NCBI GenBank assembly: GCA_005406025.1
Contig: BGZK01001392.1
Location: 62,001-126,000 of the forward strand
Direction of reading: 5' to 3'
Length of the DNA: 64,000 bases
Origin: Eumeta japonica
Lineage: Eukaryota; Arthropoda; Insecta; Lepidoptera; Psychidae
The position numbers and the translations under genes were made by a program. Below, piece by piece: positions 9,887-63,824 of the stretch (the stretch's first letter is position 1; every line of letters begins with the position of its first letter). The notes under the pieces are model-generated. The model was not told the DNA's origin and made no database searches. It saw only the letters and a list, made by a program, of their open reading frames with translations.

Positions 9887-12800
9887 ATGAGTGCGGCGTC
9901 GCGCACGCGCGTTCTTTACCTGGACGTGGCTTGTTTGATCTTCGGCTATTTACAGATCGTGAGTATTCGTTAATATCGCTGAAATAGCATTATGTGTATC
10001 CATGGTTTACTCACCGATCTGTTCTTGCTTCTATCTGCACTCCTAGATACTTTGGAAGTTATAAAGCTTGAAGACAATATGGTCTAGAACGAAAACCGAG
10101 TAGACATCGAAAAGTACGAATCCACATACAGACAATGCACTGACAGATTGGACACGTTAGATATAAAACCCTATTTTCATTTTCAGTTGGCAGCGATAGC
10201 ACTCACGGTGACGGCCATCTGGGTGGCCTGTGTGGAATCTGGATGCCGGTACCCAATTTTCTCTACGATTTCTCCACGATTGCCCATCAGGACCCTGTTC
10301 GTGAACATAGTCTGGGTATTCGCCGCTTTGTTGGTCACAGGAATACATAAGGTTAGTCCGATATTTTAGCAGACCACAATAACTATGACATATATCAGCA
10401 CCGATTATACTCCTATCGGCGGTATGACGCTATTGGCACGATTATAAAAACTATAAATTATTTTTCGCCAAGACTTACTTATAGTTGTATGTGCTGGTTG
10501 CTGAACGGAATTGTCCTTTATCCTCGAAACTTCACGTAGTGGCAAATCAAAGGGATAGAAGAGAGAGGAACTCACTCTTCTGTGTGATATTATCTTCACT
10601 CTCGGCGGCCATCGTGGTTTCGAGTTCAACCCAGAGTCTGTGCTGTTTTTTATACGGAACACATAGAATACGTTCGCGGTTCACATTATTGGAAAGCAAT
10701 AATTATAAAATATAATGAGCGATTTGCGGTTGCATTCTCGTTCGATGTACAGAAGAAAGCGAGCGCGAGTAGGAACAAATTGGGTTGCAGGCGTAAAGGA
10801 GGGGGCTATCTGGCACAGTATTTAATTATTATAATACGGCGTGAACAATAGTATAAGGCTTAAAATATGGAATCTTTTGCATATGTGTTATAGTGCTGAC
10901 TTAATTAATATTTTACATATTTAAGAAGAAACCAAGGGCTTAGGCATAGCCTAAGACAACACGAATGGTATTCCGATAATACAGTCCTGTATGAGCATAT
11001 TTTGAGTTTTAATTAAAACGTCCATCAATGAAATACGGCTATTCTAAATACGGAATTCAATGAATTGCTGTTTATATATTATTTATGAATGATTATATAC
11101 GATTAATACCAAGGTTGTTAGACCAAATTAAATAGGAATTTTACAGTTAAATTAATATAATTTAAAATTCAAAATTATTTTTGTGTATTACTTTATAGGT
11201 ACAGTATAAAAAGATTTTATCGATATAAAAGGAAAAATTTCGATCTTATAATTTGTCTGTCTATTGAGTATTCGCAAAATACGCAAACAGTATTAGACGA
11301 ATCATACCTAATGAAATATTATATGATAATAGTATGTACCTGGGAATAACATAACACAAATGTTTAATGACAGATATGAATATCTGTAACGGACAATAAC
11401 TGAACCGGAAAAAATAATATATTCCATTCCTTAATAGCTGAAAATATGCACTAAATTTTACTAATTAGGATAAAAGAGAGTTATAGGTATCAAGTGTAGG
11501 CTTAAATAATTCTACTGAAGAGATAGGTGACTGAAAATCAAATTCTTTATTTGAAGATAAAATAAAACCTGAATCTTATTGACAGATACTGTAAATTAAT
11601 CCCTATCCATGACGACTCGCAGATGCTCATGACGTGCGCTGTGGTCGGAAAAGGCTTGGTGCGAAAGAAAACCACCTCTATCGATTTGAGTAAAATTAAA
11701 TATGAAACAACTTTTTACAATTTAGCTAATAAGCTACATAAGATATTAACAAGCCTCGACAGCGGTCAGGACGTGTTCGAGGTCAAAGAAAAGCTCTTAG
11801 AACCTACTGATTGAAGAAAGAAATCAACTCACTGACTACAAAGACTACGTAATTACAGACGGACGACGAAATTAATAAGACCTTCACGTTCTTCCTTCGT
11901 TAGCATTCTTGTGGTATACAATACTGTGGTCGAGTAATACTTATGATGACCGCTCCTTGTCTACGCATTCCGTTTCAGCGTAAAGAAGGTTATGTGCTGA
12001 GCTACTTCGTCTTTGGGATCGTGGCGGCGGTAGGGCTGGTCATCGAGGGCACGTTGCTGGCCGCTTTCAAGGTGCACGCTCCGACTGCTTGCACAATTTT
12101 TCTACTGATCGGTGAGTTCGACCTGTCCTACATTACCATCGTTTTACTGTTATTAAAATATTGCAAAGCGTACCTTCTTATCTGTTTGCCGTTTAGTTAA
12201 ACAGCAAACAGATAGTTAGGCAGTCACAACTTTTAAAGCTTCAATTAAGAAATCGCTTTGAAACAAAGCTGCACACTGATCTATGCTGTTTACTTGTACA
12301 CGAACATTGTTATATGTAATATATGGTTTATATAGTTAATTATTAAAGCTCTTTACAAAAGTTTGGTAATTGGACTCTTTCGATACAAATAATTTTTATT
12401 AGACTAGATGTATTAAATGTCTAGTGACAATTTGTTATTTGAACGGATAAATTGGCTGGACAATGATTCCAAGGTTCGACTAGGCAATAAATCGTTCAAA
12501 TGTGCACAAAAATATCAAATGAGGAATAGACGTTGAGACAACTAAGATGTTTGAATAAACAACAACAATTTCGAATAATCTGTACTGTGTTTGAATTGAT
12601 ACTAAAGTGCGCAAATGAGCTGCAAGATGTCTGAAAGGATACTCAGATGTCTAAAGAGGAGGACTAAAGCGACTGAATGACCATCTGTAATCTAATATTA
12701 GCATAAATTATTGATGCAAAAAAAAATATGCATTTTTTTATTTTCTTTTTACAGTTTTATTGCAGTATTTTCGTGGATTGCAAGTTTAAGATTATTTATT

Positions 12801-12946
12801 TTTCCCCAGCGGTGTACGTGCTGTGCCTGTCCATGGTTTATGCTGTCTACTGCAACATAAAGCTGGAGAAGGGTTCCAAACAAAAGCCGTTTACGGTACT
12901 GCACGAGGATTGCGTCGATGGCATCAAACTAGAGGAGGCCGTATAA
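9887..12946 (+). CDS. A1: small four-pass membrane protein, subtype A
   Basis: Four coding exons, joined from splice signals and the paralogues: 9887-9958 (24 codons, phase 0), 10187-10351 (55 codons, phase 0), 11979-12111 (44 codons plus 1 base, phase 1) and 12810-12946 (ending TAA). All introns are GT-AG with good donors (GTGAGT, GTTAGT, GTGAGT). The 168-residue product starts MSAASRTRVLYLDVACL. Membrane segments lie at about 10-40 (possibly a long TM1), 60-79, 84-108 and 114-139. A charged tail of about 28 residues begins with the family motif YCNIKLEK. An acceptor just before the ATG (AG at 9876-9877) hints at an upstream untranslated exon, though a start of transcription at about 9722 is also possible. 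The likely poly(A) signal AATAAA is at 13516. Function is unknown; the layout resembles LAPTM/DUF4728-type tetraspan proteins. The separate open frames covering single exons are fragments of this model. Confidence 0.85.
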
Positions 12947-13515
12947 ATCACACTCCACTACTAATACCAAGGCCACTATCCTGCTAAGAGTGGACAGCGC
13001 GATAGCCCCCGCCGCCGCTGTCAGCTCCACTAGCGGGCTCTCCTGATCTCCCCGTGCTAAGACTGACTGCAACCGTCGTGTAACCGTATAGGCGTCTGAT
13101 TAGTAGCATTTTGGAAAGTTGTGATAGTGGGCTCCACCTTATCGCCGTTGTTTTTTTGATTAAATACTTTTATTAAATATTTGAATATTAAACGATCCAG
13201 GAATCGTTATTTACGATTATTCTAAATTATTTTTCGCGTATATAGATTAATTTTGATCACTGTCAGTTACATCGGCGCAGAGCCCGGCGGGTGCTCAGCC
13301 ATTTTTTATGCGTCATGTTTTCAAATGTTATTTTCTCCGCCATCTTCTCAGTCGACTTGTGTGTTCTCAACGATCTAGTGATGTTGTGTGGTTAGCTTAC
13401 ATGTTTGTAGTTTATGATAGACATGTTCGTACGATAATATGTAATCTGATATGTGTCATTTTAAAATTTTATGGGAAGCATCTCTCTAACTGTGATAATA
13501 TTTTAATTTTGATGA

Positions 13516-13521
13516 AATAAA
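13516..13521 (+). terminator. A1 polyadenylation signal
   Basis: AATAAA 570 bases after the A1 stop codon, followed by a T/G-rich stretch. It is the first canonical hexamer after the stop. Confidence 0.5.
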
Positions 13522-13549
13522 TATTTTCGTATGTAACATTTATTTCTTG

Positions 13550-14260
13550 AGGTTGGTCTTCTCCGAATACACAATCATACATTTCATGAGATTCAGTGTG
13601 CCAAAGCACAAGATAGTAAAATTTTCTTTTAGATCAATCTATAAGAATTATATGACCGTATTTATGCTGATGATTCTCTTATCTCATTAATTTTCAAAGG
13701 TATTCACTTTGTATTTGACGACTGGTGGGCTGTTCCTGGCCGGCCGTCTGCTGATGTATCTAATACTTGTCGAAGAGATTTCAGAAACATTGACAAGAAC
13801 TTATCGGGGTTCTAAACTTAAGACAAAAAACTAAATAATCAAAAACAGAAAATAAATATACAACTGTATTGTAACAAAAACGCACTACAGATCTTTTAGA
13901 AAATTTTTCACGGATGCAACTTCTTTTCTCAAGCGTTTGCCTCTGGTGTAAACAACGGAGTCTTATTTAATAAGAGATTTTTTTCGCTAATTTTGTCAAT
14001 ATAACACGCAGTAATATGATAGTTAGCCTTTCGAGCGAATGGCGTCTGTTTGAGATGCAGTTGGCGAATCAAATTCCAATCCAATACAACCTTGAAATAA
14101 CAACCTAAAGTTAAGATACATGTGAAATGTAATTTTATATCGATATCGGTCGTCGCGTAACAGCTATGAAGCCGACATTTTTAATAATGTCGTTTTATTA
14201 GAGTTGTCACAAATTATATTTTCAAATGGAGTTGGATATATCTAATCATGAAAACGTACT
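13550..14260. other. Intergenic between A1 and the 14.3 kb repeat, nothing recognised
   Basis: AT-rich sequence without conserved exons of the gene family, terminal repeats or long frames. Confidence 0.5.
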
Positions 14261-15099
14261 AACTGGCGTACATTAACCAAGTAAAAGTAAACAAAGCGTT
14301 TGCCCCTTTGCTTACGTAAACATTTGATATAGTTTTTAAACTTTTATTGTTATTCATGCATTCACTCATAAGCAAATATAGTTATTCATGAGTAGCTATA
14401 AAGCTATATGAGAAACTATAAAAAAATTAAAGTACATTTAATATTTATTAAAGCAATTTATTATTTAAATATTACATTCTTAACATATGAACGTTATTTA
14501 TTTATTTTGTTATATTAACATTTTTGGAAAGATTTTAACAGTGTCAAAATGGATCAATGGTAAAACAACATAGATACAAAGGAGAAGATGCACAGTTGCT
14601 TACTATTTTAATACCGAAAAGCGACCCAAAGTATACATGATATCTCTGACTCACCTTTTATAATACTATTTTATAGTACTAAAGAAAAACAAGAGAGGAA
14701 ATATTATTTATCATTTGATGTTTCATTTAAAAATCATAAGTAATGCCTACTTTTACTCTATTACTATTTTTGTACTCAAAAAACGATCGTTTTGTTATTG
14801 GAATATTATCTTATTCAATTTTTACAATTTGCACGTGTTACGCTAAAACAATGCACTGGTGAAGCGGTTTAATATCATCATCATCATCATCGCTCAATCC
14901 TGAGCCAGTCGCAATGACTGAAAGGGACAAGTCCCGATACACCGAAGGGAGCGTAAATATAGGGGGAGTGCTGGTTCTAGTCTGGATTAGGAGCGACGGG
15001 AGTGTAGAGCCAGCCGGTATTCGTGCACCCTTTAGCCAGAAACTGGAGTCTGGATAGGTAATAGGTATTATAGCGTGTCAATAAATATAATGTGAAAGA

Positions 15100-15990
15100 G
15101 AAAATTTCTTCCATTTATCTATGCGTTTATCTCTCGCTCCGTTTATCTATGTTTGCTCCGTGCTAATGTGGTTCATTCTTCTTAATTCCTATTGTAATAA
15201 TTTGTGTTTTATTTAAGAGGGTCTTCCAATTATAAATAGCTTTCTAATGTAGAAGATTTTAAAACAGAGTTATGTAAATGGTATCCACCTATTAATAGAT
15301 ATTTTTCTTATCCATTTTTTTTCCGCCAATCACATCTCAATTTATTTGCTTCACTTGATACAAAACTTTTAGTGTCCATCTAGGAGTTGGTGAAGTTCAA
15401 CCGCAGCATTTTTAACATGTACTTTATTATGAGCTAATGTTGTCCATTCTTGTTAGTTTATATTGTCATAGCCAGTGATCACAGTCTGAGTGGATCTCTC
15501 GAGTGTAAATAGCTTTCTGTTGTAGTAAATTTTAAATTGGAGTTAAGTAGTTAGTGTCGAGATCTTCTTAAAGTAAAGCTTTCTCACCTAATTTCTTTGT
15601 TCCGTCTATTTTCCATTCTTCATTTTCTTCGTTCCCAGAAACGGACATTGAAATTTGTTCAGTGTCCCTTTCTGGGAGTTGCTAAAATTCATTTACAGTC
15701 TTTCTAGTTTCGTTTGGCCCATTTGTCTTGGTTCCTATTGCAATAACTCATTCTTGTCTACACCAGTCTCCCATGTGTTACTAGGCCATGCAACTTTTCT
15801 TTCTGTTGTAGAAGATTTTAAAACAGTATTACTTATGTGGCGTCGAGATCTTTATAAGTGAAATAGTTATTTCCTAAATTTATTTCATCTGTTAATCTTT
15901 TTTTTCTCGTTTTCTTTGTTTAGTGCAGATTTACAGTGTCCATTTCTGGACTTTAGTTGAGTTCATCAGCAGCGTTTCCAATTTTGTGTA
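15100..15990. repeat. Degenerate tandem array, unit about 285 bp, ~3 copies
   Basis: Two anchors recur at about 285 base spacing. The first is tagctttct-t-tgtag with aaattttaaa, at about 15239, 15510 and 15797. The second is agtgtcc-t-tgg-gtt followed by a ttca-c-gc segment, at about 15370, 15660 and 15936. The copies are diverged and differ by indels. No coding frame is shared, so this looks like a small satellite or the internal array of a rolling-circle-type element. Confidence 0.7.
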
Positions 15991-16043
15991 ACCTATTATT
16001 TTTGTTTCTTATGATCTTAATAGGTATGCCACCTAATATGAGA

Positions 16044-16072
16044 TGCGGGCATCTTTAGGCGTAGATGCCCGA
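16044..16072. repeat. Hairpin between the array and the mariner fragment
   Basis: gcgggcatct and agatgcccg pair across an 8-10 base loop. It may be part of a transposon end. Confidence 0.7.
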
Positions 16073-21507: not shown

Positions 21508-24500
21508 ATGAAGCTGCGCACGCGCTACCTGTACTGCATCCCCGTGGAAGAAGCGGTTACGGCGCTAGGCCATTTCCATGCCGTGAGTGTATATCGCTTA
21601 TACGAGCGGTTTCGTCGATTATATTCGACACATTACAAGACTTAGAAAGCTGTTTAAGTCATTTCAAATAAAAGGATGATGTGTACTATTGCCATGAAAA
21701 CGTTAATCACCTGCAATCACAGCTATCATGCAAATTATATTTTTCAATAATAGTTATTGGACAGTAAGTCGTGTTTTGCTGTCCATTGAGCGCACTAGAA
21801 AGTAGATTTAAGTTAAAATATTATGTGATTTGTGATTTTTATTTTACAAAGATAGGCATAGCTAAGCTTAGCGGAGTTCAATTACTTTTGATGACAATAG
21901 ACGAGTGCGCGTATTAGACAGCGGTCGTCCTATCATTTAGTATAAGTGCCTGTAGTCAACTAAATGTGTTTCATTCCAGAGTGTAACGTTCGTCGGTATC
22001 GTGTATTGCTTTAGGAAAATCGTGCACGACGCCTATTATTTACCTGACTTCTCTGCCAACTACAGAGATCGTTATCTTAAGTATGTAAAGGGCATGTGCT
22101 TGACGCTGCCGGTCCTGGGATTGTGCCTGACCTCGGCGGTCGCGCTCCTCGTCGGCGTGAAGAAGGTAATGAGTGATTAATATAATGTATGCAGAAATTC
22201 GACTTTGTCGCAGAACATGTAAAAACAATTAAATTGAGCAATTAAGAGAATAAGGATATTTTATCTCCAGCATATCTATTTGATAATATGGGTTTTTATA
22301 GTTTAATTTGGTACCATAGAGAAGGTATTGACTTGAATTTATGTGCTTTTTATGGCTTCATATATTTTTCGGAGATGGTTAATTTTCATTGTCACTTTTA
22401 TTTTTGACGGTCACATGGTGACCGTTGATATCTAGTATAAGTTACTTTACGCTTTTGACATACTAAATCGAAAGGAAGCCTTTGGTTAAATATAATCACA
22501 TTTGGGATATGAAAAAGACGATGGATGATCATAGACAGCTAAATGTTTGAAATTACATGTATTGTTAAGTTAATTTGATATGGTAGCAAACCGTTGCGAC
22601 CACTAGCGGCTCTCAGGGGTGTGCACAGAGATTCAGGCAGGGTATGCAAAGCTAAAAACAACTTACCAGTTTCGGCATTGTTTCGGTTATGCAAGGTAAA
22701 CAGATACTTAACGTCGCGTCGGTGGGCCACCTACCGGAACAATGCTGAAACCAGTAAGTTTTTTTACCTTTGCATATCCTGTCTGAATCTCGATGCATGC
22801 TCCTGGACTCTAGCAAGACGCTCTAGAGACAAGTCTCTCTTTAGGACTGTCTTTCGCGCGCAATCTAAGAAGAGAAAGAGTTAGTCATATAGAAACAGAC
22901 TCTTTTGTAGGGTCATGTTAATCCACAGGACGTGACGCGACGTGCTCGAGGAGGCGATAGTGCCACTGCTTAAAATTCTACGCTTTTGCTCCACTTAGCA
23001 AACTCCGATTTATTTCATATAGATGACGTAATGCCACCTGATGTGCATACGGTCTTCCGTAGCGCCGCCCGGGCTACGTGCTGACGTACTTCATATTGGG
23101 CGTGCTGGCCACTCTCGGCCTGGCCGTCTATTGGCTGGTGCAAGTGTATTACTCTTACTGCCAATGTTCGTACCCTTATTACATCTTCTACGAGGGCGGT
23201 ATAGAAGTACTTCTAGCATTATGTGAGTAGAGTTTGCTGTAGTTTAAAACTAAATACGTTACGATTATACGCTGCGCTGCTGTTGGCGTTACTGTGTCCG
23301 CACTTCTATTAGTCTACGATGCCGTTTTATGTAATAGATCCTTCATTCTTTTTCCAGGCGAAATATATTTTTTAACAAAGAAATATATTAACAAGCATGA
23401 CCCAAATTTGGGTCATGCTTGTTAATATATTTCTTTATATATGGGGGGTTATCGCCAAAAATTTGGTCCAGGTGGTATTTGGTGGTATTTGGTGGTATTT
23501 GGTATTTATAATTAATTTTTTTTATTGATTTTTTTTTAAATACAAGGACTTTTTTCCTGTGTCAACTTAGTATCAATTTAAAGTATAAGATTTAGAGAAT
23601 ATGCGATCGTACGGTTGATTCGAGCAATTCACTACTTCAATTTACCTATTTATACCTGGATTTCAGGTAATGGGGCTCCGAAAAAGGCCGACAACCGTAC
23701 GATGGCATATTTAATAAGACTTTTATTTTCAATTGAAACTAAGTTGTGAAAGAAAAACAGTTTATGAACTTAAAAAAAAATCAAAATTTTTAATTAAAAA
23801 TGGCCTGGACCAAATTTTTGGCGACAACCCTTGGGTCACGTTTGTTAATATGATTTATTGTTAAAAATATATACTTCGCCTGGTAAAAGAATGAGGAGTC
23901 TACCACACAGACCGGGATCTTCTATATTGGTATCTTAATTGGCAAATAAAACGAAAACAAAAATTAATTCTGAAGTTAACTTGCCATTATCGACGTGTTC
24001 GTTGACTTAATCCCGTCAGGCATTATTGCGTAATCTGTAGTAATATAATCCTGTCCCTATTTACGCTCTCGTTTGCTTTACATAGTATTATTTAAACACA
24101 TTGCTCATTTAGTAATTATGAGTGTGCAACGATCATGGAATTGAAATCAGTTCAACTGACGGACATTTCGCCAACGGCGACGTGTCGACTCGTGCGCCGA
24201 TTACTGTCGATTTCCCTTTTCGAATTGGAAGATCACGTCTTCCATTTTTTTAGACATATTGTGGTGTTTACAAATCTATGTTTAATAATTATTAAACATA
24301 GATAAACTACTAATTAGTAGTTCAACCATTTGAACACCACAAGTGTTCATATGGTACTGTAGCGATTTCTTGTAACTAACTCCCTATATCAAAATAAACG
24401 CTATCCGCTTGTCTGCGCGTTTTATTTTCATTTGATCTCAATTCTCCATCCTCCGTTAGGGGCATTACGCAACATTTTATACACGTATATTTAAGAGATT

Positions 24501-25069
24501 ATAAAAATTGTGCTAGAAAATTTCGTTTACTGTCGTGCAGTTTCTTGCTCGTTCTTCTTGAGGGAAAAGTGCCTTCCGAACGAGCGGTAAAGTGTAAATT
24601 CGCAAAAAGTTATGATGTATTTCAAGTGTTATTTTGTAGCCTGTGAAATAAAGATATTTTGAATTTGCATTTGCAAAAGAATTTACGAGTGTCACATAAA
24701 ATGTACAAATGTACAGACGGAAAGAATTTGCTATAAAGTATTTTTTCGTTTTCTATTCGACTCTACTCACAACATACGCAGATCGTAAACAATCTTATAA
24801 TACATACGTATAATAATTACTTTATACGAAATGTAATCAATATTATATTACGTAATAATTTTCTTCAAACAAATTCACGTAAACTATAACATAAACGAGG
24901 CCTCGACTAAATTGACAAATGCGTGTTCTTTGCTTCAGTCGCGTACGCGCTGTTCCTGCCGACGGTCTACTTCCAGTACTGCAACATAAGGCTGGAGAAG
25001 GACGGCAACGACATGATCTATAATACGTCGCAGGAGAGCAATAAGATTAAGGAGAAAGATGTAGTGTAG
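21508..25069 (+). CDS. B1: small four-pass membrane protein, subtype B
   Basis: Coding exons: 21508-21582 (25 codons, phase 0), 21980-22165 (62 codons, phase 0), 23063-23222 (53 codons plus 1 base, phase 1) and 24939-25069 (ending TAG). All introns are GT-AG. The 183-residue product begins MKLRTRYLYCIPVEEAV. Membrane segments lie at about 15-35, 64-86, 91-116 and 131-160. The second and third exon loops are tyrosine-rich (YYLPDF; YYSYCQCSYPYY). The family motif appears as YCNIRLEK after TM4, then a polar, charged tail of about 29 residues. The start is supported by the identical exon architecture in B2 and by acceptor ttgcag 16 bases upstream. Introns 2 and 3 hold foldback elements and a LINE end. 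Function is unknown. The overlapping open frames at 21447-21671 and 23041-23226 are in the wrong frame. Confidence 0.85.
22608..22812. mobile_element. Foldback element with ~60-70 bp arms in B1 intron 2
   Basis: The left arm (about 22627-22690: gagattcaggcaggg, tatgcaaa, cttaccagtttcggcattg) is mirrored by the right arm (about 22735-22797: caatgctgaaaccagtaag, tttgcatatcctgtctgaatct). The short centre holds an internal ggtgggccacc palindrome. Such folding could influence splicing of the intron. No target duplication was defined. Confidence 0.7.
23344..23895. mobile_element. Nested foldback element in B1 intron 3
   Basis: The outer arms begin tccttcattcttttt-ccaggcgaa and end with its reverse complement ttcgcctggtaaaagaatgagga. 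The inner parts (gccaaaaatttggtccagg at about 23453 and cctggaccaaatttttggc at about 23801) also mirror each other. Between them are a ggtggtattt tandem run (23472-23505) and A/T tracts. A perfect 60-base palindrome interrupts the left arm. Confidence 0.75.
23377..23436. repeat. Perfect 60-base palindrome
   Basis: The arms of 30 bases meet at cccaaatttggg with no loop (centre between 23406 and 23407). The left half alone continues the outer element, so the right half appears to be a local inverted duplication of the left. Confidence 0.9.
24276..24301. repeat. 26-base perfect palindrome
   Basis: ctatgtttaataa and ttattaaacatag meet directly. It is surrounded by further matching pieces (gtggtgttt at 24261 and aacaccac at 24337), which suggests a small foldback element at about 24258-24350. 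Confidence 0.8.
24535..24670 (+). mobile_element. LINE 3' end, plus orientation, in B1 intron 3
   Basis: Same sequence series as the minus-strand copy at 20985-21135, ending atgaaataaagatatttt-ga. The two copies are inverted relative to each other and bracket most of the B1 coding exons. Confidence 0.65.
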
Positions 25070-30989: not shown

Positions 30990-31375
30990 TTTAGTCCATG
31001 TTTGGGATTAAGATGAACGAGAAAGATGACTTTGTAATACCAAAATTCTGAAAAAAGAACATGGAAATGAATTTGTGAACAGACAATCTGAAATGAAAAT
31101 GGAAGCGCAAAAACAAATTATGAAAGTACATAAAAACCAGAAGAATATACAACAAAAAGAGGCGATCATCTATAAGCTTAAAGACTTGGTAGTTTTGCAA
31201 CGGAATCAATATGGACAATGAACGAAGATTTATCCAAAATTCATGGTACCCTAATGAAATTACAAAAATAAAAGGAAAGAATCGATACTCGCTGGAAAAA
31301 ATCGCGGATGAAGAAGGTGCCATTCGAACAACAGCCAGTGCTGACATGTTAGATGTCACTTAGGACTTACTCGGG
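30990..31375 (+). pseudogene. Decayed coding relic, coiled-coil-like
   Basis: In the + frames with shifts this stretch reads as charged, heptad-like sequence (NRQSEMKMEAQKQIMKVHK; QQKEAIIYKLKDLVV) and ends with RYSLEKIADEEGAIRTT then a stop. The minus-strand open frame over the same interval is hydrophobic and is probably the shadow. It could be the gag or ORF1 of an unidentified retroelement. No family assignment is made. Confidence 0.3.
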
Positions 31376-32212: not shown

Positions 32213-32238
32213 TAGGGAATCGTCGAAGAATTCATCTC

Positions 32239-32330
32239 AGTGCTCGGTCCCGATCGGGACGGTGGCCAGTGGTGTGGTCGCTGGCGCGCCGTTCAGGCCC
32301 GATAAACTGTACGTTACTGTTGAAGCAAGT
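32239..32330 (+). pseudogene. Orphan copy of the B first exon and initiator
   Basis: From attcatctcagtgctcgg through gttactgttg (about 92 bases), only about three bases differ from 20164-20255. After that, about 29 bases are inserted and the equivalent of the B1 donor GTAAGT reads ATAAGT, so the normal splice donor is lost. The TATA box seen at B1 is also absent. No B coding exons were found between here and A2. This is best explained as the promoter of a lost duplicate B gene. Confidence 0.65.
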
Positions 32331-48280: not shown

Positions 48281-48756
48281 GTTAAAGGTTGTTAACATTA
48301 GTTGTTACCGTTCCAGTGACAAGTATTATTATTAACCTTCTTATTCATATTGTAACATGATTTTTTCTCGTACCTGTATAAGTCGTGCCAAAGTCTGTTG
48401 TGAGTACTCACCGAACGACCGCCAAAATGAAATCTATGCTTTTGGAACAGTTGATTTTTCTCTGATAAAGGTGACGATGTTGACACGTGCTGGGCATCAT
48501 ACTGACCCATAAAAATGGGACCAGTGACCAGCGAGGCACACGTGCGATGTGACGGCTCGAGGTGTGGAGGCGAGCGGGACGTAGTAGGAGTACGCGGGTA
48601 CAAGGCGGTGAAACACGCTCGTCGAATATCGGGCAACCGAGCGATAGTGGAAATAGTGCTTTAGAAAAAGATGTATTTAGTTGGTGTATTTTGTAACTTA
48701 CAGCAAAGTTAGCCATCTGAGCTTAGTTTATGGAAATATCTTTGGATCACTGCAAA

Positions 48757-48800
48757 AGTATTTATAATACCCAGCCCTCCACACTTCGTTTCCTTTCCAG
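48757..48800 (+). promoter_or_regulatory. Candidate A2 promoter/acceptor region
   Basis: agtatttataata at about 48756 matches the A1 proximal TATA candidate (9691 on), and cgtttcctttccag up to 48800 matches the A1 acceptor-like tract. Either transcription starts close to the ATG or an upstream untranslated exon splices to 48801. Confidence 0.3.
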
Positions 48801-48809
48801 CCGCTGACT

Positions 48810-51800
48810 ATGGTCACACGGTTGCGCGCGCCATTGTCCTGGCTGGATGTGGCCTGTTTGACATTTGGCTATTTACAAATAGTGAGTATTGTTTCTCGCT
48901 GCGCTTGCTCGACTCTTCTGTTTGTGCGCGACTTACCGATCTGTTCCCGTCTAATACATTGCATTTTCCATTTCTAGTTAGTAGCGATGGCGCTTACGAT
49001 AGTGGCAATTTGGGTAGCCTGTGTGGAATCGGTAAGGCCGCACCCGGTTTCTACCGACGTTTGTTCGCGCTTGGCCATCAAGATCCTGCTTACGACCACC
49101 ATCTTAATGTTCGCCGCCACGCTGGTCAAAGGAGTCCACACACAGTAAGCCATGATTTTTAGAAAATAGCGATGACTTCCGCCATGCGTCAACACCTATA
49201 GAACTTCTACGAATGACTTGCGCTACATCACCATATATACTATTTGAATTTATCAATTTTGAAGATAGCAATGTTCACTTTATCACTAGAAAGTTCTTGT
49301 TATTAATTTTAAGTACCAACGAGGTGTTACCTGCAAACAGTGCCATCTCATAAAGATGTGCAACCAGGCTGTATAAGCCGTTCATACTAAAGCAGAAAGT
49401 AGTAATAAATTACTTTTAATTTTGTTGGAGATGCAGTACAAGCATATTTATATATTAAAAATAAAATAAAACATAGCGCCTCTTTAACGGTAATAGTTTA
49501 TGTCTCAGAGCAACAGAATGTTTCTTTATTCCCTCAGTGCTTTTTTAACATTTATTCGATAAGTGTTTATAATCAACAATGTATCAATATTTATAAAGAA
49601 CAAGAGCGAAAATGGGAAAAGGAATATATTGTATTCGACGATGATTTGAGACGAAAATATGAGTATTGAATTTCGAATAAAAATAGACGATAAAACTTTG
49701 AACAAAGATATAGACGTAGCTTTCGCTATTAAAAAAAATCTTTACCAATATTCCAGTTATAACTACACAACTTTTAAGGTCTTTGCTTACTCTCACTGAA
49801 ACTTTGTTGAAGTGTAACGTCGATGTTTACACATGTCAAATATAATATAAATATAATAATATTCTTAAAGCTTTCAAATATATAAATATGAAAAACTACT
49901 GATCTTGAGATCCACTCTAAAAATAATTAATTTAATAATAGACTTCATTACTCCATTTTTAGAATTGATTTTTAAATGCTTGTACTGATAGTGCAGCATT
50001 TTCAGGTCTAATGAAACAAAGTAATATAATTTTAATTTTTAAATTCGGTAGCATATTCGACCTTTCGAACTTCAGACCGATATCAATACTATCGACACTC
50101 AGGAAAATTTTTAAAAACTTATCGTTAATCTACTACCGCGGTATATTTATAAAAAATATTTGATGAACAGTTTAGATTTACAGAGGGTCACTCAACAACT
50201 GAAGCCGGTATCTTGTTGAATTTTAAGCTCATTTACTAGATTTTTGGTGCCTGGGAGGAGTGACGGGATTTCAATAGTATTTTCTGTGATTTATCCACGG
50301 TATTTGATTTCGTTCATCATGAAAAATTGATCAGGAAATAACGTCACTGCCGCGTCAGGAGTCGATCACTTGGATTTTTGTAGTCATATTTGTGTGTCAG
50401 AGTTCAGAATGTTGATATCAATGGTGTGAGGTGTCGGGATTTGCAATCAATGTGGGTGTGCTACAGGGTTCAGTTTTTGCACCATTCTATTTCTAGTTTA
50501 TATTAATGATCTACAACATCATGTGAAAAACGAGTATGAGATTGCACAGTTTTTTGACAATACTTCTTTATTTTTTAAGGTTAATAAAGAAGAACCAGCT
50601 TTTGACGAAGTAAATAGTACTATCTCAGAAGTAACTGAGTGGTTTACTGTTAATAATCTTTTATTCAATGGGAAGAATATAAAACTCGTTAAATTTTCGT
50701 TGTCTAATACTAAACCGGACGACACAAACATAGCAGTCAAGGACGATACACGGGATATTGTGGACACGTTTCTATTTCGTGGTCTCACTTGTGATATTAA
50801 GATAGAGTAGAATTTCCTTATAACAAAATTGGCGAAAAAACTTAGTTCTACAGCATACGCCGTAGAAAGAGTTCGGTGACTTATAAATAAAAGCACCGGG
50901 TTACTTTAAGCAAAGGTTGCTTTAGTTTTTTTGGTAGTCTCTTCAACTATGGAGTTTTATTATGGGGTCATGCAGCCTATATACACACGATCTTTGTGCT
51001 TCAGAAGCGAGCTATCCGTGTCATTTATAACTTGAGACTAAAAGTATCTCTTACACAAAAAATTATGAAATTAATCTTTTAACTGTACCATCACAATACA
51101 TATACGAAAGCCTGGCACATGCCAAGAGAAATATAAATTCATTCCTAAAAATGAACGACATTCTTATTATTAAGACTAGATCTAAGAATGACTTTGCTGT
51201 TCATAAAACCTGACTCAGAAAAGTTAACGATAATGTGTGCCCTTTTATAATAAGATCCTTCAATATATTCTATCTCATAAATTTATAACTACCATTAAAA
51301 AAAGTTATACGGTCAGGGCTATCATGCTGTATATGAATGTATTAACGATTAAGGCCCATGAGATTGAACTGCTTGGCTATCAGGTTGTTTCATGTCGTTT
51401 TCAATTTTTTTACTAGTTTTATGGAACATCTATCCTCTATCTTTTCGAAAAAAAAATAAACCTTGAGTTCCTGCCCATTTTTTCAAGATGAATCATCATT
51501 TGGAATGGGTGGTAATGTCAACGCCAAATAATAAAATAATGACGTATTTCAAGTATAATTTTACTACCTATGAAATAAAGATATATTTGATTTGATTTTA
51601 TTTATGAAGTAGATTTTACTCATTTTGAGGTAAAGGAATGTTAAAAGTAACAAAATTATACGGTAGTTTATATCGAACTTAGTAAACATCACTTTCAACA
51701 AATTTATTACCAGTTGGACTTTTGCTTGTTACTAGTTACTGGATTGTAAAGTAACAATAATTTTTTTATTTCAAAATTGGATAACATGTTTGTCGATACT

Positions 51801-54045
51801 TATTTATACATTGCATTAATGCTTATCCATGATGGTGTGGTGTGGATGTTTAATACACATGATATGACCAACCGGTTGAGGGGCAAAAAACCACCTCTCT
51901 ATTGTTTTCGATAACATTAAATAAGATTTTTGTTTTTACAACTTTGACAAACGATGAAACTTTAGAGTAGTTATTAACAAGAGACATCAGTTTACCGACT
52001 ATAATGCAAATTACACACCGACAACAAAATCTAATCCGCCTAGACGTTAATGATTTTTCTTTGTAAGCATTCCTGAAATAGTCAGGTTTACGACTCCCCG
52101 CCTACGCATTGTCATTCCGTTTCAGCGAAAGGAAGGTCACGTGCTGAGCTACTTCGTCTTCGGGGTCGTGGCGGCGGCGGGGCTGGTCGTCGAGGGCACG
52201 CTGCTGGCCGCCTTCGAGGTGGACTCCCTGATCGCCTGCACAATTTTTTTACTCATTGGTGAGTTCCATGTTTCTTCCCACTCCAACAGGTAATTAAAAT
52301 ATTACATAGAATTATTATGTATCGATGTAATTTCCTTTCATCTATTCAAAGCTTAAACTATAAAAAAATGGGCAAAACAACGTTGCACGTCGATCTGTAC
52401 TGTTAAGTAGGGCCACCAAACGTGGTTAATAATAATTTATACGCCTCAACTGTTTGAACATTTTTTATATAAACTAAAACTACTTGACAGGACGATGGAA
52501 ATGCAAAAGTGAATGCAAAACAGACATCCACAGCCTACCCTGCATTATCCTGTAAACGTCTTATTCCAAGTACAGTCCGTTCGAGTTCAGCTGCAACACA
52601 GCGGTTTGTAGAGCAACTGCAGTTGTATGTATAAGGGAATGGAAACGCAAATTTATGGCAAACACCCGCAGCCTGCGCCGCGTAGTCGTGCGAATGAATT
52701 AAACCAAATACAGTTGTTCGGACCAATATGTAAACAGTGGTTTTTAATACAAGCGCATTTGTTTGTATAAGGCATTGCATTTGTGTATATTAAAGAACGG
52801 AAACACAGATTACGGATATCGCATAGTATTGTGTTGCAAATCATTTAATGTGTTGTTATCAATTCGTTCGATCTCTGTTTCAATACAGTTATCTTGATCA
52901 CGTTTATTGCAAAAGGTAATCAAGGACTGACAGTTACGAATATAATAATATTTTACAGTTTTACAGCACTAAAATAATACTTTCTTAACAGCAGTAAAAA
53001 GAAACAGATGTAACATTACAGTTTCTTTTTTTTATATACGGAAATGCATCAGGAATATGCTTTGGGAATATGACAGTAAATATTAATCTTTAGTATCAGA
53101 ACGGTATCTATATCATTCCTGCCAAAATCGTCGCTCCTTTCCTTCGTCTTCACTTAAGAGTGACTCGGTAATGTCTACATCTTTATGACGAACAATAGTT
53201 AGATTTGGGTCCGTTTTGTCCTTGCGCCTTAATTTTTGTGCTTGCGAAATAGTAGGCCTATGATCTGGCCGTAGAGGCGCCTCTTTCGCACGACGTCGCC
53301 GAGCGCGACCGCCCTACAGACAGCGTCTAGCGATGTACACTGCAGCTGTGGTTGTTCAATGCGGTGGGCGAGTCGATGAGGCTGTTGGATATGCGTATCG
53401 GTTTGTATCACGGAACGAATAGAAACTGTATTGTATGTGTTTTGATTAAAAAAATGTCTTCAAAGCCGATCGCATTGCAGTCAGTTTTGTAATATCGCTT
53501 TTCCAATACTTTATTTATGTGGATGCAGCTGCCTTACAGAAAAATGACTGCATTGCAACTGCCTTTGTATTTGAACTGGATGCGTTAAATAAGTGTCCAG
53601 TAATTACGGTTTTGTTTGGGAGGTAATATGATCGAAAAATTATTTCAATGTCAGAAGCAAAATGCCCCGATGAACATTAAGACATCATAATCAGGAATAA
53701 AGTGACAGATCGGACATAAAATGTATAAATAGGCAGTGAAATATTCAAAAATATTTTGATTGTCCCAGAAATGTAGTCAATCCTACAAGTGGTAACTGGA
53801 AATTGATGAAAACTTAAATTGTTCATAATATTTTTAAGAAAATAAATATTTTTGATAAATCTGGTAAACTTTTATTTCTTAATAATAAGATGTACATATG
53901 CTACTTTAATATTCTATGTTTGTCCCCAGTGGTGTACGCGCTGTGTCTGTTGATGGTGTACGTCGTTTACAGAAACATAAAGCTAGAGAAGCGTCCCGAG
54001 CACGGGCACCAGAACACCCTGCACGAGCTGAAGGACTCCGTGTAG
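48810..54045 (+). CDS. A2: small four-pass membrane protein, subtype A, probably damaged
   Basis: Coding exons by homology with A1: 48810-48881 (24 codons, phase 0; MVTRLRAPLSWLDVACL), 48978-49144, 52126-52258 (44 codons plus 1 base, phase 1) and 53930-54045 (ending TAG). Exon 3 is nearly the same as in A1 (VLSYFVFG; VEGTLLAAF). After TM4 the motif reads YRNIKLEK, with Cys replaced by Arg, then a 22-residue tail. Problem: exon 2 ends ACACA followed by GTAAGC, giving phase 2, whereas exon 3 needs phase 0. Without splicing the frame stops after V-H-T-Q. One extra G (CAG then GTAAGC) would restore the A1 structure with about 162 residues. So it is either a pseudogenising deletion, a site using another donor, or an assembly error. 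Intron 2 holds a LINE. The poly(A) signal is at 54856. Confidence 0.7.
50030..51600 (+). pseudogene. LINE reverse-transcriptase relic in A2 intron 2
   Basis: Pieces in several frames follow the order of a Jockey/CR1-like RT: F-R-P-I-S-I-L-S-T-L-R-K (about 50070), FCDLSTVFDFVHHEKLI (about 50290), a decayed GVxQGS region, YINDL (about 50505), then F-F-D-N-T where the catalytic F-A-D-D is expected (about 50550), and WFTVNNLLFNGKN (about 50640). Downstream KLSSTAYAV, MEFYYGVMQP and FYNKI (about 50830-51260) match the C-terminal region. The 3' end is gtatttcaag ... aataaagatatatttgatttga, near 51545-51595. Many stops and loss of both catalytic aspartates' context show it is dead. Confidence 0.75.
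52563..52830. repeat. Two-copy degenerate tandem repeat, unit ~133 bp, in A2 intron 3
   Basis: ccaagtacagt, aacacagcggttt, gtatgtataag and gaatggaaacgcaa-ttatgg in the first unit correspond to ccaaatacagt, aaacagtggttt, gtttgtataag and gaacggaaacaca-gattacgg in the second. Origin is unknown. Confidence 0.5.
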
Positions 54046-57708: not shown

Positions 57709-57729
57709 GTTACTATTGTGCAGATCTTT

Positions 57730-59300
57730 CGTCGAAAACACACTCCTTATCGTCGGCTTTTTGTGTCGGGGAACCGTTTACACTTCAGTTATTGGCAAAT
57801 TCACATTCAGTTTTGAGAATACCTAGTCCTTATGAGTTATAAGGACTCTCGGTGAGTACCCTAATCTACATCCAGGGCTAATAATAAATACAATAATTCA
57901 GTTCACTTTGTACGTTGCACTAGATCATGAGGGTCTTTCGGGACCACGCAATTTGTAACTTTTAGGAAACTTATAAGATATTACAATAAATAGGTATCCC
58001 GAGCTCACCGCCCCCGTGCCCTACACGCTTCTTAAAAATACCTTACAGTAATCAGAGACCTCAACATTCAAAGAGCGTATTAGGATCCTCAAAACCTTAA
58101 TATCTGATAAACATATTTAAATTCACATGTTACTGTGGTCTAGTTAGGAGTTCAATCTCTACAGCAAGTTGCTATTCATCTCGTAAAATATGGTAGAGAA
58201 ATTATTCGATTCGGAATGAAAGCAGTTATTAACTTAGAGTTAATTCTTCTAATAAAATTATAATTTGTAGATTGGTTCTGGAAAATTAAAAAAGGCGTAC
58301 TTTGAGATATATTGCAAGAGAATCTCGTTAATGACATTAAAAAGAGCACATTCGAAAACTTTATCACACGATTGTGCTAGCTATAGCTAGTTTTATGTCC
58401 TTAAATGCGCTGTGAGAACATTCTCTAAAAAATTAAACTTTGTAAGGAAATTTAATTTTCTACCATTATTGAACAGATTTCTTTTAGCAAAGCCGAGTGT
58501 TGATGTTCCTTTTTATCTACATATTAGAAGGAATTTTCACGAGATGTACTGGGTTGTACTTAAATATAAAACTTTCTTCTTAGAAGCTGACCACGCCTTT
58601 TAGTGAGGCACAGTGAGATTATTACCGTATAAATAGAAGTATATAGTTAAAAGTTGATATTTATTTATTCAGAAATAATGTTAATTAAACTATTTATTTA
58701 CTATAGTTTACTTTCACTAGTTTACATACGTTTAGAAGGACTTAGTGTGAGATGGTTTTTTTTCGAAGGACAATATGAAATTTTAATTTTTTACTCTCTT
58801 TTATATCTTTGGGTATATACATTCTAGGTTACGTTCATGAAAACTAAAAACCTATGAGATATACCAAACTCACGACAGCCAAAGCTACATAAATTTTGTC
58901 AATATCTAACTTCAGATTCTGGTCAGCATTCAAAATTTGTCTTTATTCAAATTCCTTCAATCCTACATAACGATATGACCTGCGTTAGTTGAGAACGCGC
59001 TACCTCAGGGTCGAATGACGACTTGGCGAGGTGTACATTACGCTTTGGGAGTGTTTGACCAGCGCCGGGCCGGGCGTTCGTGCTCGAGACCAGCGGCCCC
59101 CGCGCCTCGCCCCGGCGAGACCTGCAGGCGGAGGCGGCGACGGAGGCACTCGTCGCTTAAACATTACTTATTTATTTTAACAATACTTACTTCGTCAATG
59201 AGGTGCGTCAGCATACCGGCAAGTCTGAGAAGGATTTCCAAATAAATACTAAATCAAAACAAAGTTTCTCGATATGCTGATAACAGGTGTCGCGTTTTTC
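57730..59300. other. Intergenic, no gene recognised
   Basis: 58880-58940 (cttcagattctggtcagcat) matches 41755-41785 (ctgcagattctagtcagcat) within loosely similar surroundings, a sign of old duplication. The GC-rich arginine-coding frame at 59015-59245 has no paralogue and is not called. Confidence 0.4.
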
Positions 59301-59314
59301 TCAATAAACGGTCT

Positions 59315-59385
59315 ACGTAAAAACCGCATGACGCAAGCGGCCGGCCACGACGTTCGCGCCGATAACCTGAGTGATAGCGCCGCGC
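59315..59385 (+). promoter_or_regulatory. Weak third copy of the B upstream element
   Basis: gtaaaaaccgcatgacgcaag, then cgcgccgataacctgagtgatagcg, parallels the ends of the upstream regions at 19190-19255 and 32140-32205 (aaccg-tgacg, cgccgat). It lies 2.4 kb before the B2 first exon. The match is short. Confidence 0.3.
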
Positions 59386-59399
59386 GCGCTTAGGAAAAC

Positions 59400-61780
59400 G
59401 CGTCGATCGATTAACCTAAACGGTCTGGGGCTGGCCCCGCGGTCTGTGGATACGGTGAATGAAATTATAATGTAGGGTGTGGTAATGGCAATGGATTTAT
59501 TAAGAGCTCTTGTTTAGATGATGGAGAAGATGGCGGAGGATTGTTTATGTCTTGAAGGTAAGAAATATGAGAAGAGCTTTATAAAAGATTATTATATACT
59601 TTTCATTATTCAGTTTATAAGCGTAATTCGTAATAATAGAGTGAAGCATTTTCTCGTAGAAAGTTTGAAAATATGTTCAACTGATTTTGTTTAAATAAAA
59701 CTTTTTAAAGAAAAATTATATTTAATTCGAGAACTCTTCCAATATGTTCTCAAATCTTAAATAAAATGAAGCTAACATTTCTTAAGTAACTCACTTAATT
59801 ATTAGCGTTGGTGTATTTACAGTTTCAATTTCTTGGCCAAAATTGGGTCAGAGGTTATAAATGTTTAATGCACTTGATACCATTATGACAAGCTATATTA
59901 AAACAAAAAAAAAATACAAAAAAATATTTGTCGTACTTTTTAGAATTTTAGCTGTTTAGAACAACATTTTAATAATTAATGTACCTTGTTCGATATAATG
60001 AAAACACACGTCATGTTTTGTTTATATTTATTACAGAGACATACAAAATATAAAGATTCTCGGATTTGCCACTGGCTTAGGCCACAAAAAATTTTGTGCG
60101 GCAACTTGGGATTTCTAATCGCTAATCTATTCTTCTCTATGCTGTAATTTCCAATAACAGACGGCGGGCGGTGGGCCGTCTCGCTGTGCGCGTTCACGCA
60201 GGCACACGGGCCGTAACGCGGACTTACTGCGAGTTTGACGCGGTAATCGTATCTGTAAATCGATTTTATTGGTAGGATCGATTCATCGATAACCGCGTAT
60301 AAATTATTAAAAAGTAAGTATTATATTTTCATTATTATTCACAAAATGCTTAAACTGTAATTGTTTAAAAACATCCTGAAAAATTAAACGATTATGCTCT
60401 GCCAATCACAGAGCTGAATATGTGTAACCAACTCAGTGTACCTACATTATAATTTAACACCAAACCGCTTTTTGTATCTCTATGATATTACATCAAATTA
60501 ACAATTTTCAGATTTATTTCTTTACTTGTGCTGTATGACCTTACATCTTATCAATTTCATTGTTGTAGGTTAACAGGATATACCTTATACGTTTTGAATT
60601 ATTTGAAAGCATTGCATATTAAAAAAAATATGGCCGTATTTTTTATAGTGTGTTCATATAGAACCTTGATTTTGTAAAGCTTCAAAAAGTTGTAGAGCTA
60701 AGAATTTGATATTAATATGAACTTGATACCTCCAAGCGTTTTTGCCAAAGTCTTGACAGATAAACAAACGGATAACGAAATGATTCTGTGAACATCTATT
60801 TTGAGATTCGAATTCTTAAAACAGCCCCGAGTAACCTCGACCTGGTAATTTGTAATTTACACACTTTGAGGTCTGATGAGAGTCCTGTCTCTTCCTGATT
60901 GAGGAGCTACAAGAAGCGATGTACAAATGGCGTTGTCACATTATACATATGAGGACACAATAATTCTGGTTGGGTACTCTATTTCACTACCATCTTTTCT
61001 ACTACAACTTCCATGGACTTTACACGAAGAATACACCTCGGCTGAGCAGTGTTCGGGAAATTACGAGTTTTACCACTGATGATATATGGACGCAGATTTT
61101 GGTCTCATACTGTCCGTGTTATAAACAAGCCTCAGAGCGAAACAATGTGCTATGAGAAAAGCCATGATTAGAGTTTCTATGCAAGATAAAATATGTAGTT
61201 AAAATATTCAAAGAAGAATTAAAGTGACTGAAGTAGCTTACATAGTCGGTAATTAATGTGGTAATGGGAAAGGTTACATTGCTCGTAGAACCGATAATTG
61301 CTGAAGAAAAAATATTCTAAAGTGGCGATCACGAACTGGGGGTATGATGGCCTGCCACACAACATGGTCAACAACCAGAAAACATGGTCAAGATGGGAGG
61401 TCAAGGGGAGCCTCCGTTGTTTACAGTTGATCCAGGACTTTATGTTGTGGAAATAGACGAGAAAAGTGTATATCCAATTAGTAGAGGCAAAAAGGTATTC
61501 CGGTCGTGCTATATATTAAAATATTAAGAAATTGCACTGCGATTTGCAAACGGACAAGTTGATTACGGTTTGTGTTTCAAAATTTTATAAAATCCAAATT
61601 CACATTAAATGCTTCTGGGAGTTGGTGTATATTACGTAGTTTCGATTTCGATAAATCGATCTTTGCGATATTCGATTTGCTTGCATCAGGAACGTCACTA
61701 TCGAATCTTCTTGTAAATATGTGATATATTAAGAATTGTTGTTGGGAGAATCGCGTGTTTTGCACCAGGCGTGCGTCGCA
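59400..61780. other. Intergenic, no gene recognised
   Basis: AT-rich with short frames (for example 60970-61155 and 61219-61404) of no recognisable family. A palindromic tcgatttcgataaatcga lies at about 61644. Confidence 0.4.
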
Positions 61781-61785
61781 CGCAC

Positions 61786-61913
61786 TATATTTATACGACT
61801 GCTAACGACGCAATTATCAGTCGCGACCCGAGCTTTGTAGTGAGTGGTGTTTGCTGTCGCGCTGTGCTTAGACCCGATAAGCTGTGAACTACTGCTGGAA
61901 CATAAGTATTTAG
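61786..61913 (+). promoter_or_regulatory. B2 core promoter and non-coding first exon
   Basis: TATATTTATA at 61786-61795 and TCAGT initiator with A at 61819, 33 bases on. The exon 61819-61913 ends at donor GTAAGT (61914). Shared with B1: tcgcgacccgag/gtgacccgag-like sequence, tggtgt-gctg-cgc, cccgataa and actactg/gttactg. At the place of the B1 donor this copy reads ATAAGT, as the orphan does, but it has a new GTAAGT 14 bases downstream. It splices by inference to 63728. Confidence 0.6.
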
Positions 61914-62584
61914 GTAAGTTTAATCTTAATGTAAAAGTGATATTTACTTAACTGATTGTCTTTATGTTTTGCATATGTGATTATAATAGTTTGTAAGGAG
62001 GTGTGATGCTTACGAGATCGGTATGCTGTAAGCAAAGTAGACCATATTTGGAAAGAGTATAGTACAGTATGGGTATCAGATGAAAATAACCAGATCGCAA
62101 GTCAATGCTGGGGTCCTTCAGCACACGGGCAGGTTTATTTTAGGTAGCTATTAGCAGTTAGACATTAGTGAGTATCTTGTACACAGACGACGCCGGCAAT
62201 CGGCGCCCCCCAGGCCGCGCCCGCGCGGTGGTGGAAACAAACGGCACAGTGTAGCCACTTAGTGGCCAGAGGTCTTACGTAGGAATCATAGCAATAATTA
62301 ATTCAATAATTAAGGAGATTTACTATGTTTTTGACATGGACTCAAATGTTTAAAATTATTTTTATATTTTAATTGTGAACTTTTGATAGGCATGAAACAT
62401 AAATTTATTATTAGTCGGCGGTGGCGTTTCAGAGCGTGAACCAATAATAAATCTAAAATAGTAATATTTAAAACAAAAAGAAACTGTGAGGTACCTGTAC
62501 TAATAATTACAATATTATCAGTCGGTATAACAATTTTAATTACAAATATCTAAGTAATTAGTATACTTAAAAGTGTTTTTTTAT

Positions 62585-62735
62585 ACCTTGACGATAAGGT
62601 TGCTTTTCGTCCCCGGGAGAAAAGTAGGACTTTTCCCATGGTGCGCATACGATTTTTTTTTCATACCTGGATAAGAAGTTCACTTTTCGTCCCCGGTATC
62701 GGGGCAAAAAGTCCCACATTCTCTCCCGGCGCTAC
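62585..62735. repeat. Repeat of ttttcgtccccgg units in B2 intron
   Basis: Two direct copies of aaggttgcttttcgtccccgg-like sequence (62597 and 62672), each followed by aaaag-cccac/ggactttt pieces in opposite sense, which allow hairpins. A known-looking dispersed repeat without coding frame. Confidence 0.5.
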
Positions 62736-63743
62736 TTCATATCGCCACAGCTGTCCGCCATAACTCACCAAAATAGATCTAAATGAGGTATTTTTTTCTT
62801 AAATTCTGTGTTGAATTACGTATTTAACCTATGAACTCATTATTTAATGGTCAATACCTACCGTTCCGCGCCGTCTAAATACTTGTGCAATAACTTATAA
62901 TAATTATGTAGATACATCGTTGTCGTCCCATCTGCCGGATAAATTAAGTACTAGGATATACCATTATAGTCACTTTGAAGATACCCTGACATAGTAAAAT
63001 GGATGTGAGACGCGACTACCCATCGATTCATATTAGAATTATTAAACGTCCGCTTCCAACTTCACCTCCCAATAGTTCATTGGCGGCTGTTTCGAAAAAA
63101 TAAATTGATAATGTCGTACAAGGTCGAAAGCGAGGCAGTGACGCGGGGTCTGAGCAGCGTTCTTTGTTTGCGGAAATGAAAGAAAGACTTGGACCAGGCG
63201 GTGTGAGGTTAGTCGCGGTACAGACACGGCGTCATCGGACCGACTGTGACGATGTGCCCTCCTAAGTAATTATCATTAATTCACAGTAGTCGTAGCTCTG
63301 TGTAAGGACACTCGACTTTTAGCTGAAGGTCGTGGGGTGGATCTAGTTTCTTCATTAGCGCGGAAGTATGTTCCACGTAATGTCTTGATCATTTTGATGC
63401 AGTATAAAGACAGATTAGTGTGCCGACAAATAACACCTTGAGAAATTATACGTAAAGTAACATTTTTGACTATCAATATAAGTAAGTTCTTGACTTGAAA
63501 GCATCTCCGGGACAGGACTCAAGAGAGGTCTTTCAAAAGGCACGAGGGATATCGCTGCCCCTAAGCTAATTCCGTCCAGAGTGTGACCGGTTGCACGACA
63601 CCGAGGCCCGTTGTCGTGACGTCTAACGCCTGTCACAGGCACGGCTAGAGTTTGTTACTTTTTGGGAACAACGTATGTCACATTTCGCATATGACTAGTT
63701 TTAGAATACAGCTTGTTGATATTGCAGGTGCAAGTCCCACAAG

Positions 63744-63824
63744 ATGACGCCGAGGCCGCGCACGCGCTTTCTGTGTTGCATCCCCGTGGAAGGAACGGCG
63801 AAAGCATTGGGCTACTTCCAGGCC
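63744..63824 (+). CDS. B2: first coding exon of a subtype B membrane protein (partial)
   Basis: The acceptor attgcag ends at 63727, the ATG is at 63744, and 27 codons run to a GTGAGT donor at 63825. The peptide starts MTPRPRTRFLCCIPVEGTAK and ends A-L-G-Y-F-Q-A. It is closely similar to the B1 first coding exon (R-T-R-Y/F-L-x-C-I-P-V-E, A-L-G-x-F-x-A) with two extra residues near the start. The remaining three coding exons lie beyond the window. The longer open frame at 63713-63961 is a different frame over the same exon. Confidence 0.75.

What the first reader, a model, noticed from the sequence alone, without database searches (positions are those of the whole stretch)
9887..63824. Alternating tandem cluster of two subtypes of a small four-pass membrane protein
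The window shows four family members in the order A1, B1, A2, B2, all on the + strand, with the same four coding exons and intron phases 0, 0, 1 and the Y-C/R-N-I-K/R-L-E-K signature. A and B differ mainly in exon 1 and in the loop lengths of exons 2 and 3. Alternation with about 39-42 kb between like subtypes suggests that an A+B pair was duplicated as a unit. None of the exons is visible as a full gene in simple open-frame scans, so such clusters are easily missed by annotation. Function is unknown. The layout resembles LAPTM/DUF4728-type proteins, by inference only.
Basis: partly seen in the sequence, partly recalled or inferred. Interest (0 to 1): 0.75.

Follow-up and report, generated by a model that had tools for sequence, protein, structure and literature searches.

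The report
Bagworm cluster of four-pass membrane genes
A bagworm moth carries a fast-changing cluster of small genes for proteins that cross the membrane four times, perhaps distant relatives of insect cell-junction proteins; the genes look real and are poorly annotated, but they resemble a known kind of gene family.

Summary
The window is Eumeta japonica (bagworm) DNA, bases 62,001-126,000 of a 160,481-base contig. It holds all four coding exons of A1, B1 and A2 (phases 0,0,1) and exon 1 of B2, whose other exons lie past the window edge. A2's second donor is two bases out of frame.

A-B-A-B is only what the window shows: the contig reads B B B A B A B B, with further copies on two other contigs. 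A genes group together, not with neighbouring B (weaker with all rows). A1-B1 and A2-B2 share no intergenic sequence, so that pair duplication is not shown; A2-B2 is collinear with an A3-B remnant pair elsewhere.

The proteins match Pfam DUF4728 weakly: 10 of 12, none at cut-off; reversed controls 0 of 10. I recall DUF4728 as the Pasiflora/Fire exit type, but that family's PW motif is in 0 of 15. The deposited annotation splits A1 into two genes. Function is inferred only.

The parts
9887..9958 (+). A1 coding exon 1 (MSAASRTRVLYLDVACLIFGYLQI), phase 0 donor
   Evidence: deposited EVAR_55960
10187..10351 (+). A1 coding exon 2 (TM1, first outer loop, TM2)
   Evidence: EVAR_55960
11979..12111 (+). 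A1 coding exon 3 (TM3), phase 1 donor
   Evidence: EVAR_55961
12810..12946 (+). A1 coding exon 4 (TM4, YCNIKLEK, tail, stop)
   Evidence: EVAR_55961
20170..20259 (+). candidate non-coding 5' exon of B1, followed by GTAAGT; 5' end approximate
   Evidence: aligns with copies upstream of B2 and B3; no transcript seen
21508..21582 (+). B1 coding exon 1
21980..22165 (+). B1 coding exon 2
23063..23222 (+). B1 coding exon 3
24939..25069 (+). B1 coding exon 4 (YCNIRLEK, stop)
32226..32322 (+). orphan copy of the B1 5' leader, 96.9% identical over 97 bases; no B coding exons found beside it
   Evidence: exon search
48810..48881 (+). A2 coding exon 1
48978..49142 (+). A2 coding exon 2 to its phase-0 boundary; the GT donor is two bases further on, so the frame breaks
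52126..52258 (+). A2 coding exon 3; lies in a stretch 95-99% identical to A3 on C775
53930..54045 (+). A2 coding exon 4 (YRNIKLEK, stop)
61817..61913 (+). candidate non-coding 5' exon of B2, followed by GTAAGT; 5' end approximate
   Evidence: no transcript seen
63744..63824 (+). B2 coding exon 1; exons 2-4 lie beyond the window (C1381:127099-127293, 127584-127725, 128801-128940)
   Evidence: deposited EVAR_55969 contains this spliced protein

Best explanation
The window shows the middle of a birth-and-death gene cluster in the bagworm Eumeta japonica. The genes encode proteins of 161-191 residues (Bc is longer) that cross the membrane four times. They form a fast-diverging branch, split into A and B types plus a third type, distantly related to DUF4728 proteins. 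Shown here: the gene structures, the copies, the A/B split, the hydrophobic segments, the weak DUF4728 profile match. Inferred: both ends lie in the cytoplasm; they act like Pasiflora-type proteins, side by side in the plasma membrane of epithelial or glial cells; the cytoplasmic tail (last residue V or I in 12 of 15) binds a scaffold such as a PDZ protein; copies diversify in the outer loops.
For: Twelve in-frame models with 34 of 36 introns GT-AG (exceptions: A2 intron 2; Bd intron 2, GC-AG) and the same three intron positions and phases. Deposited models agree for whole B genes: EVAR_55969 contains the full spliced B2, and EVAR_41859 and EVAR_41869 are complete B-type proteins; the genome paper says genes were predicted with BRAKER2 guided by cDNA reads (passages). 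Whole-gene dN/dS is 0.36-0.76 in 11 of 11 chosen pairs. Four hydrophobic segments in 13 of 15, five in Bb and Bc. DUF4728 at E<=1 in 10 of 12, best E 5.1e-5, against 0 of 10 reversed sequences. Pasiflora layout: PMC4582180, abstract and passages and section 9.
Against: No DUF4728 match reaches the cut-off of 26.7 bits (best 24.3, Bd). B1 has none at E<=10, Bf and Ah none at E<=1. Of six deposited proteins, four match DUF4728 at E<=1 but it is the top family only in EVAR_41869; EVAR_41859 and EVAR_41856 score higher with DUF2975 (22.6 and 24.0 bits). PW motif 0 of 15. The first outer loop holds 0-6 basic residues, so the topology by charge is not clear-cut. Single-exon dN/dS reaches 0.8-1.4 in places. 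No expression data were available; the AlphaFold model is poor (pLDDT 51.5). A final V or I is shared by related copies, so it is not 12 independent events; Ba, Bc and Ah lack it.
Confidence: 0.55

Rival explanations
1. A lineage-specific four-pass family unrelated to DUF4728; the weak match reflects shared helix make-up only.
For: All DUF4728 scores are below cut-off and PW is absent; two deposited B proteins score higher with DUF2975; the three protein searches returned only E. japonica proteins (2, 10 and 1 hits).
Against: DUF4728 is matched by the most members (10 of 12; next 3 of 12), over much the same profile stretch in the rows shown; reversed sequences 0 of 10. The protein search needs shared 5-residue words, and one search hit its candidate cap, so absence elsewhere is weak evidence.
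Confidence: 0.25
2. LAPTM-type lysosomal four-pass proteins, as the first reader also suggested.
For: Four-pass layout only.
Against: No LAPTM family among the Pfam matches at E<=10 for A1 and B1, or among the 25 of 27 families shown at E<=1 for the 12 members.
Confidence: 0.03
3. Much of the cluster is decaying: the genes in the window are mostly pseudogenes.
For: A2 frame break; Bg has a frame break and no AG at exon 3 (by eye); A4 shows only exons 1-2 in the 7,000 bases read, with a frame break; B4 shows only exons 3-4.
Against: A1, B1, B2 and B3 are open with standard splice sites, and whole-gene dN/dS is under 1 in the 11 pairs. The assembly is nanopore-based with Illumina polishing (PMC6488591, passages), so small indels may be errors.
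Confidence: 0.12

Closest known systems
Pfam PF15860 (DUF4728)
   Same: 10 of 12 proteins match at E<=1; in the full-length rows shown the match covers most of the 91-position profile, over the second to fourth helices
   Different: All scores are below the curated cut-off; no member of known function could be aligned here
Pasiflora1/Pasiflora2 and the wider nine-member Drosophila family with Fire exit (PMC4582180)
   Same: Similar length to Pasiflora1 (169 residues), four membrane passes, first outer loop the larger in most
   Different: No PW at the start of TM3 (10 of 15 read PGY, EGY or EGH there), no VxSQYQ; many tandem copies. That DUF4728 is this family is recalled, not from a call
Claudins
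   Same: Small four-pass layout (passages)
   Different: No claudin family among the Pfam matches at E<=10 for A1 and B1

Membership tests
DUF4728 (PF15860) | Curated gathering score 26.7 bits | tested here: not met
   best 24.3 bits, Bd; none of the rows shown reaches it
DUF4728 (PF15860) | Profile signal above control sequences | tested here: met
   10 of 12 at E<=1 against 0 of 10 reversed (Bc and Bf were not reversed)
Pasiflora/Fire exit family | PW motif at start of TM3 | tested here: not met
   0 of 15 proteins contain PW anywhere (Bc cut to 190 residues)
Pasiflora/Fire exit family | VxSQYQ (Pasiflora1) or VxS (Pasiflora2) at the TM4 boundary | tested here: not met
   by eye in the alignment of 12: VxSQYQ in none; a short VxS in Ba (VYS) and Bc (VHS) only
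Pasiflora/Fire exit family | Four TM helices | tested here: met
   four segments in 13 of 15, five in Bb and Bc, by a simple hydropathy scale
Pasiflora/Fire exit family | Larger first outer loop | tested here: met
   longer than the second in 11 of the 13 four-segment proteins, equal in A2 and A3
Pasiflora/Fire exit family | N-terminus and C-terminus inside the cell | tested here: inconclusive
   basic residues are few (0-2) in the second outer loop and 3-4 in the short middle loop, but the first outer loop holds 0-6 (the 13 four-segment proteins)
Pasiflora/Fire exit family | Location at septate junctions | not testable with these tools
   needs imaging
LAPTM | Pfam LAPTM match | tested here: not met
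   none at E<=10 for A1 and B1

The most novel reading that the evidence does not exclude
A and B are two partner classes of a moth-specific four-pass system that assemble together in one membrane complex, with the B class diversifying fast in its outer loops to tune a barrier or contact surface peculiar to bagworms, such as that of the silk gland or gut.
Probability: 0.1. Interest if true: 0.55.

Novelty: new variant of a known kind. Interest (0 to 1): 0.3.

Why it matters
[quoted passage not shown] It also shows how gene prediction splits or loses small genes made of short exons: A1 became two genes, and no deposited model for B1 appeared among the hits of the three protein searches. Beyond that it is ordinary gene-cluster evolution.

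Tried and rejected
Considered and rejected: chance similarity (shuffled control); LAPTM; A1+B1 as sister genes; the A1-B1 to A2-B2 pair duplication. PDB sequence searches: nothing better than E 1.2 for B1, nothing at E<=10 for the alignment. The AlphaFold model was too poor to search with, so no fold search was made. No Rfam family at gathering score and no tRNA in the window. The two mechanical ORFs of 120 codons or more (30991-31359, 50519-50896) have no Pfam match better than E 0.13.

Papers. Searches. Five deposited locus names gave 0 papers; Psychidae with gene family expansion and tandem gave 0; DUF4728 gave one paper, PMC5531438, seen in the listing only; one search was too broad to use. 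Only openly licensed full texts are held.

Not done: a genome-wide search with a B protein. C775:100001-220000, 227001-250000 and the last 568 bases, and most of C3273, were not read, so copy numbers are lower bounds. Other moths were searched only through the three protein searches.
Full report
What was checked. The window lies at C1381:62001-126000 of genome G000. The first protein search returned two deposited proteins, 99% and 100% identical to parts of A1 and named EVAR_55961 and EVAR_55960 of Eumeta japonica, from a contig of 160,481 bases, which is the length of C1381. I take the assembly to be that of PMC6488591, which calls the species Eumeta variegata; its totals (724-732 Mb, about 12,720 contigs) differ from those of G000 (701.7 Mb, 5,067 contigs).

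Gene structure. A comparison of translated open stretches already pairs exons of A1 with A2 and exon 1 of B1 with B2. I read the DNA, fetched the rest of C1381 and parts of C775 and C3273, and located exons with tblastn. Exon boundaries were set by hand and translated. Twelve models result: Ba, Bb, Bc, A1, B1, A2, B2, B3 on C1381, Bd on C3273, Be, A3 and Bf on C775. All 12 have four coding exons with introns in phases 0, 0 and 1. Of 36 introns, 34 are GT-AG; Bd intron 2 is GC-AG, and A2 intron 2 is described below. A third-type gene, Ah (C775, minus strand), has the same layout, read by eye. Bg on C775 looks broken. Shuffled exon peptides give no hit where real ones give 71.

Deposited models bear on this independently. 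EVAR_55969 contains the whole spliced B2; EVAR_55973 holds B3 exons 2-4; EVAR_41859 and EVAR_41869 are complete B-type proteins on the 284,568-base contig, C775. EVAR_55960 holds A1 exons 1-2 with other sequence after them, and EVAR_55961 holds exons 3-4. EVAR_55967 holds A2 exon 3 and then reads exon 4 in another frame. No B1 protein was among the 2, 10 and 1 hits returned.

A2. In A3 the second donor is in phase; in A2 the GT lies two bases later. With the ordinary exon 3 acceptor this shifts the frame. A2 also has an AG 40 bases upstream of exon 3 that A3 lacks; the frame is open from there, but nothing shows that it is used. The assembly is nanopore-based with Illumina polishing, so an assembly error is possible. 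I leave A2 open: broken, misassembled or spliced differently.

The cluster. On C1381 the order is B B B A B A B B, all plus strand. B2 and B3 sit in a long tandem duplication, pieces 73-88% alike. A2, A3 and A4 regions align over two kilobases or more. The block from A2 to B2 is collinear, in pieces of 67-92% identity, with the block from A3 to a B remnant, B4, on C775. B4's part also matches the B3 block (72-89%), as B2 and B3 are near copies; the link to A2-B2 rests on the A gene and the stretch just after it. B4 shows exons 3-4 only. A pair was thus duplicated there. Between A1-B1 and A2-B2 there is no intergenic match at E<=1e-3, and A1 and A2 regions align only at exons, apart from a 66-79% stretch near C1381:69.0-69.9k. 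So the alternation in the window does not by itself show a pair duplication.

Phylogeny. With 15 rows the A split has support 70/60 and B 77/94, with long branches for Ah, Bf and Bc. Without those three rows A is a 100/100 split, and a tree with A1 and B1 together is rejected (AU p = 9.7e-5).

Selection and exchange. Whole-gene dN/dS lies between 0.36 and 0.76 in 11 of 11 pairs chosen; single exons run from 0.07 to 1.44, with one dS out of range. A2 and A3 differ little in exon 3 (dS 0.03, one synonymous change in about 36 sites) but more in exons 1, 2 and 4 (0.26, 0.31, 0.37). Identity is also high upstream of exon 1 and in parts of intron 3. Gene conversion or strong local constraint could explain it; I did not test between them.

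Proteins. A simple hydropathy scale gives four segments in 13 of 15 and five in two. Among the 13, the first outer loop is longer than the second in 11 and equal in 2. Basic residues are few in the second outer loop (0-2) and present in the middle loop (3-4), but the first outer loop holds 0-6, so inside ends are likely, not shown. The last residue is V or I in 12 of 15; I read this as a possible PDZ ligand, from recall. Pfam DUF4728 matches 10 of 12 at E<=1 and none shown reaches the cut-off; B1, Bf and Ah do not match; 10 of the 12 reversed give none. Among six deposited proteins DUF4728 is matched by four and is top in one; two score higher with DUF2975. The Pasiflora paper (abstract, passages and section 9) gives PW and VxSQYQ as marks; PW is in 0 of 15. 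I therefore do not file these as members; they look like a divergent relative that may work like one.

5' leaders. Leaders upstream of B1, B2 and B3 and an orphan copy at window 32.2k align; a further copy lies at C775:220851-220686. GTAAGT follows those of B1 and B2, though not in the same alignment column. All ten genes printed have an AG before the ATG, 9 bases away in A and 16 in B. A non-coding first exon is likely, unproven.

Function. What is said of function is inference from the layout and from Pasiflora. This is a moderately interesting, ordinary example of gene-cluster growth, not a new kind of system.

Noticed in passing
window 32226-32322: Orphan copy of the B1 5' leader, 96.9% identical over 97 bases; the stretch just before it is 71% like sequence about 1 kb before the B1 leader; no B coding exons found nearby.
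   Followed up: partly
window 49143-52125 (A2 intron 2): Frame off by two bases at the donor, and an AG 40 bases upstream of exon 3 that A3 lacks.
   Followed up: partly
window 48478-48852, 52078-52302 and 53136-53435: Patches of 93-99% identity between A2 and A3, against 49-91% in most other segments of the two blocks compared; one patch is inside intron 3.
   Followed up: partly
window 1-353 (C1381:60689-62353, minus): Edge of a 555-codon open frame; its 437-residue part outside the window matches Pfam DDE_1, E 3.2e-40, so probably a transposase.
   Followed up: partly
L033 and L034 (C775:264001-284000): A3 followed by a B remnant with exons 3-4 only, collinear with A2-B2.
   Followed up: yes
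window 50327-51601, inside A2 intron 2: Stretch 71% like C775:62861-61564, where a long frame reads like a reverse transcriptase by eye; perhaps a retroelement.
   Followed up: no
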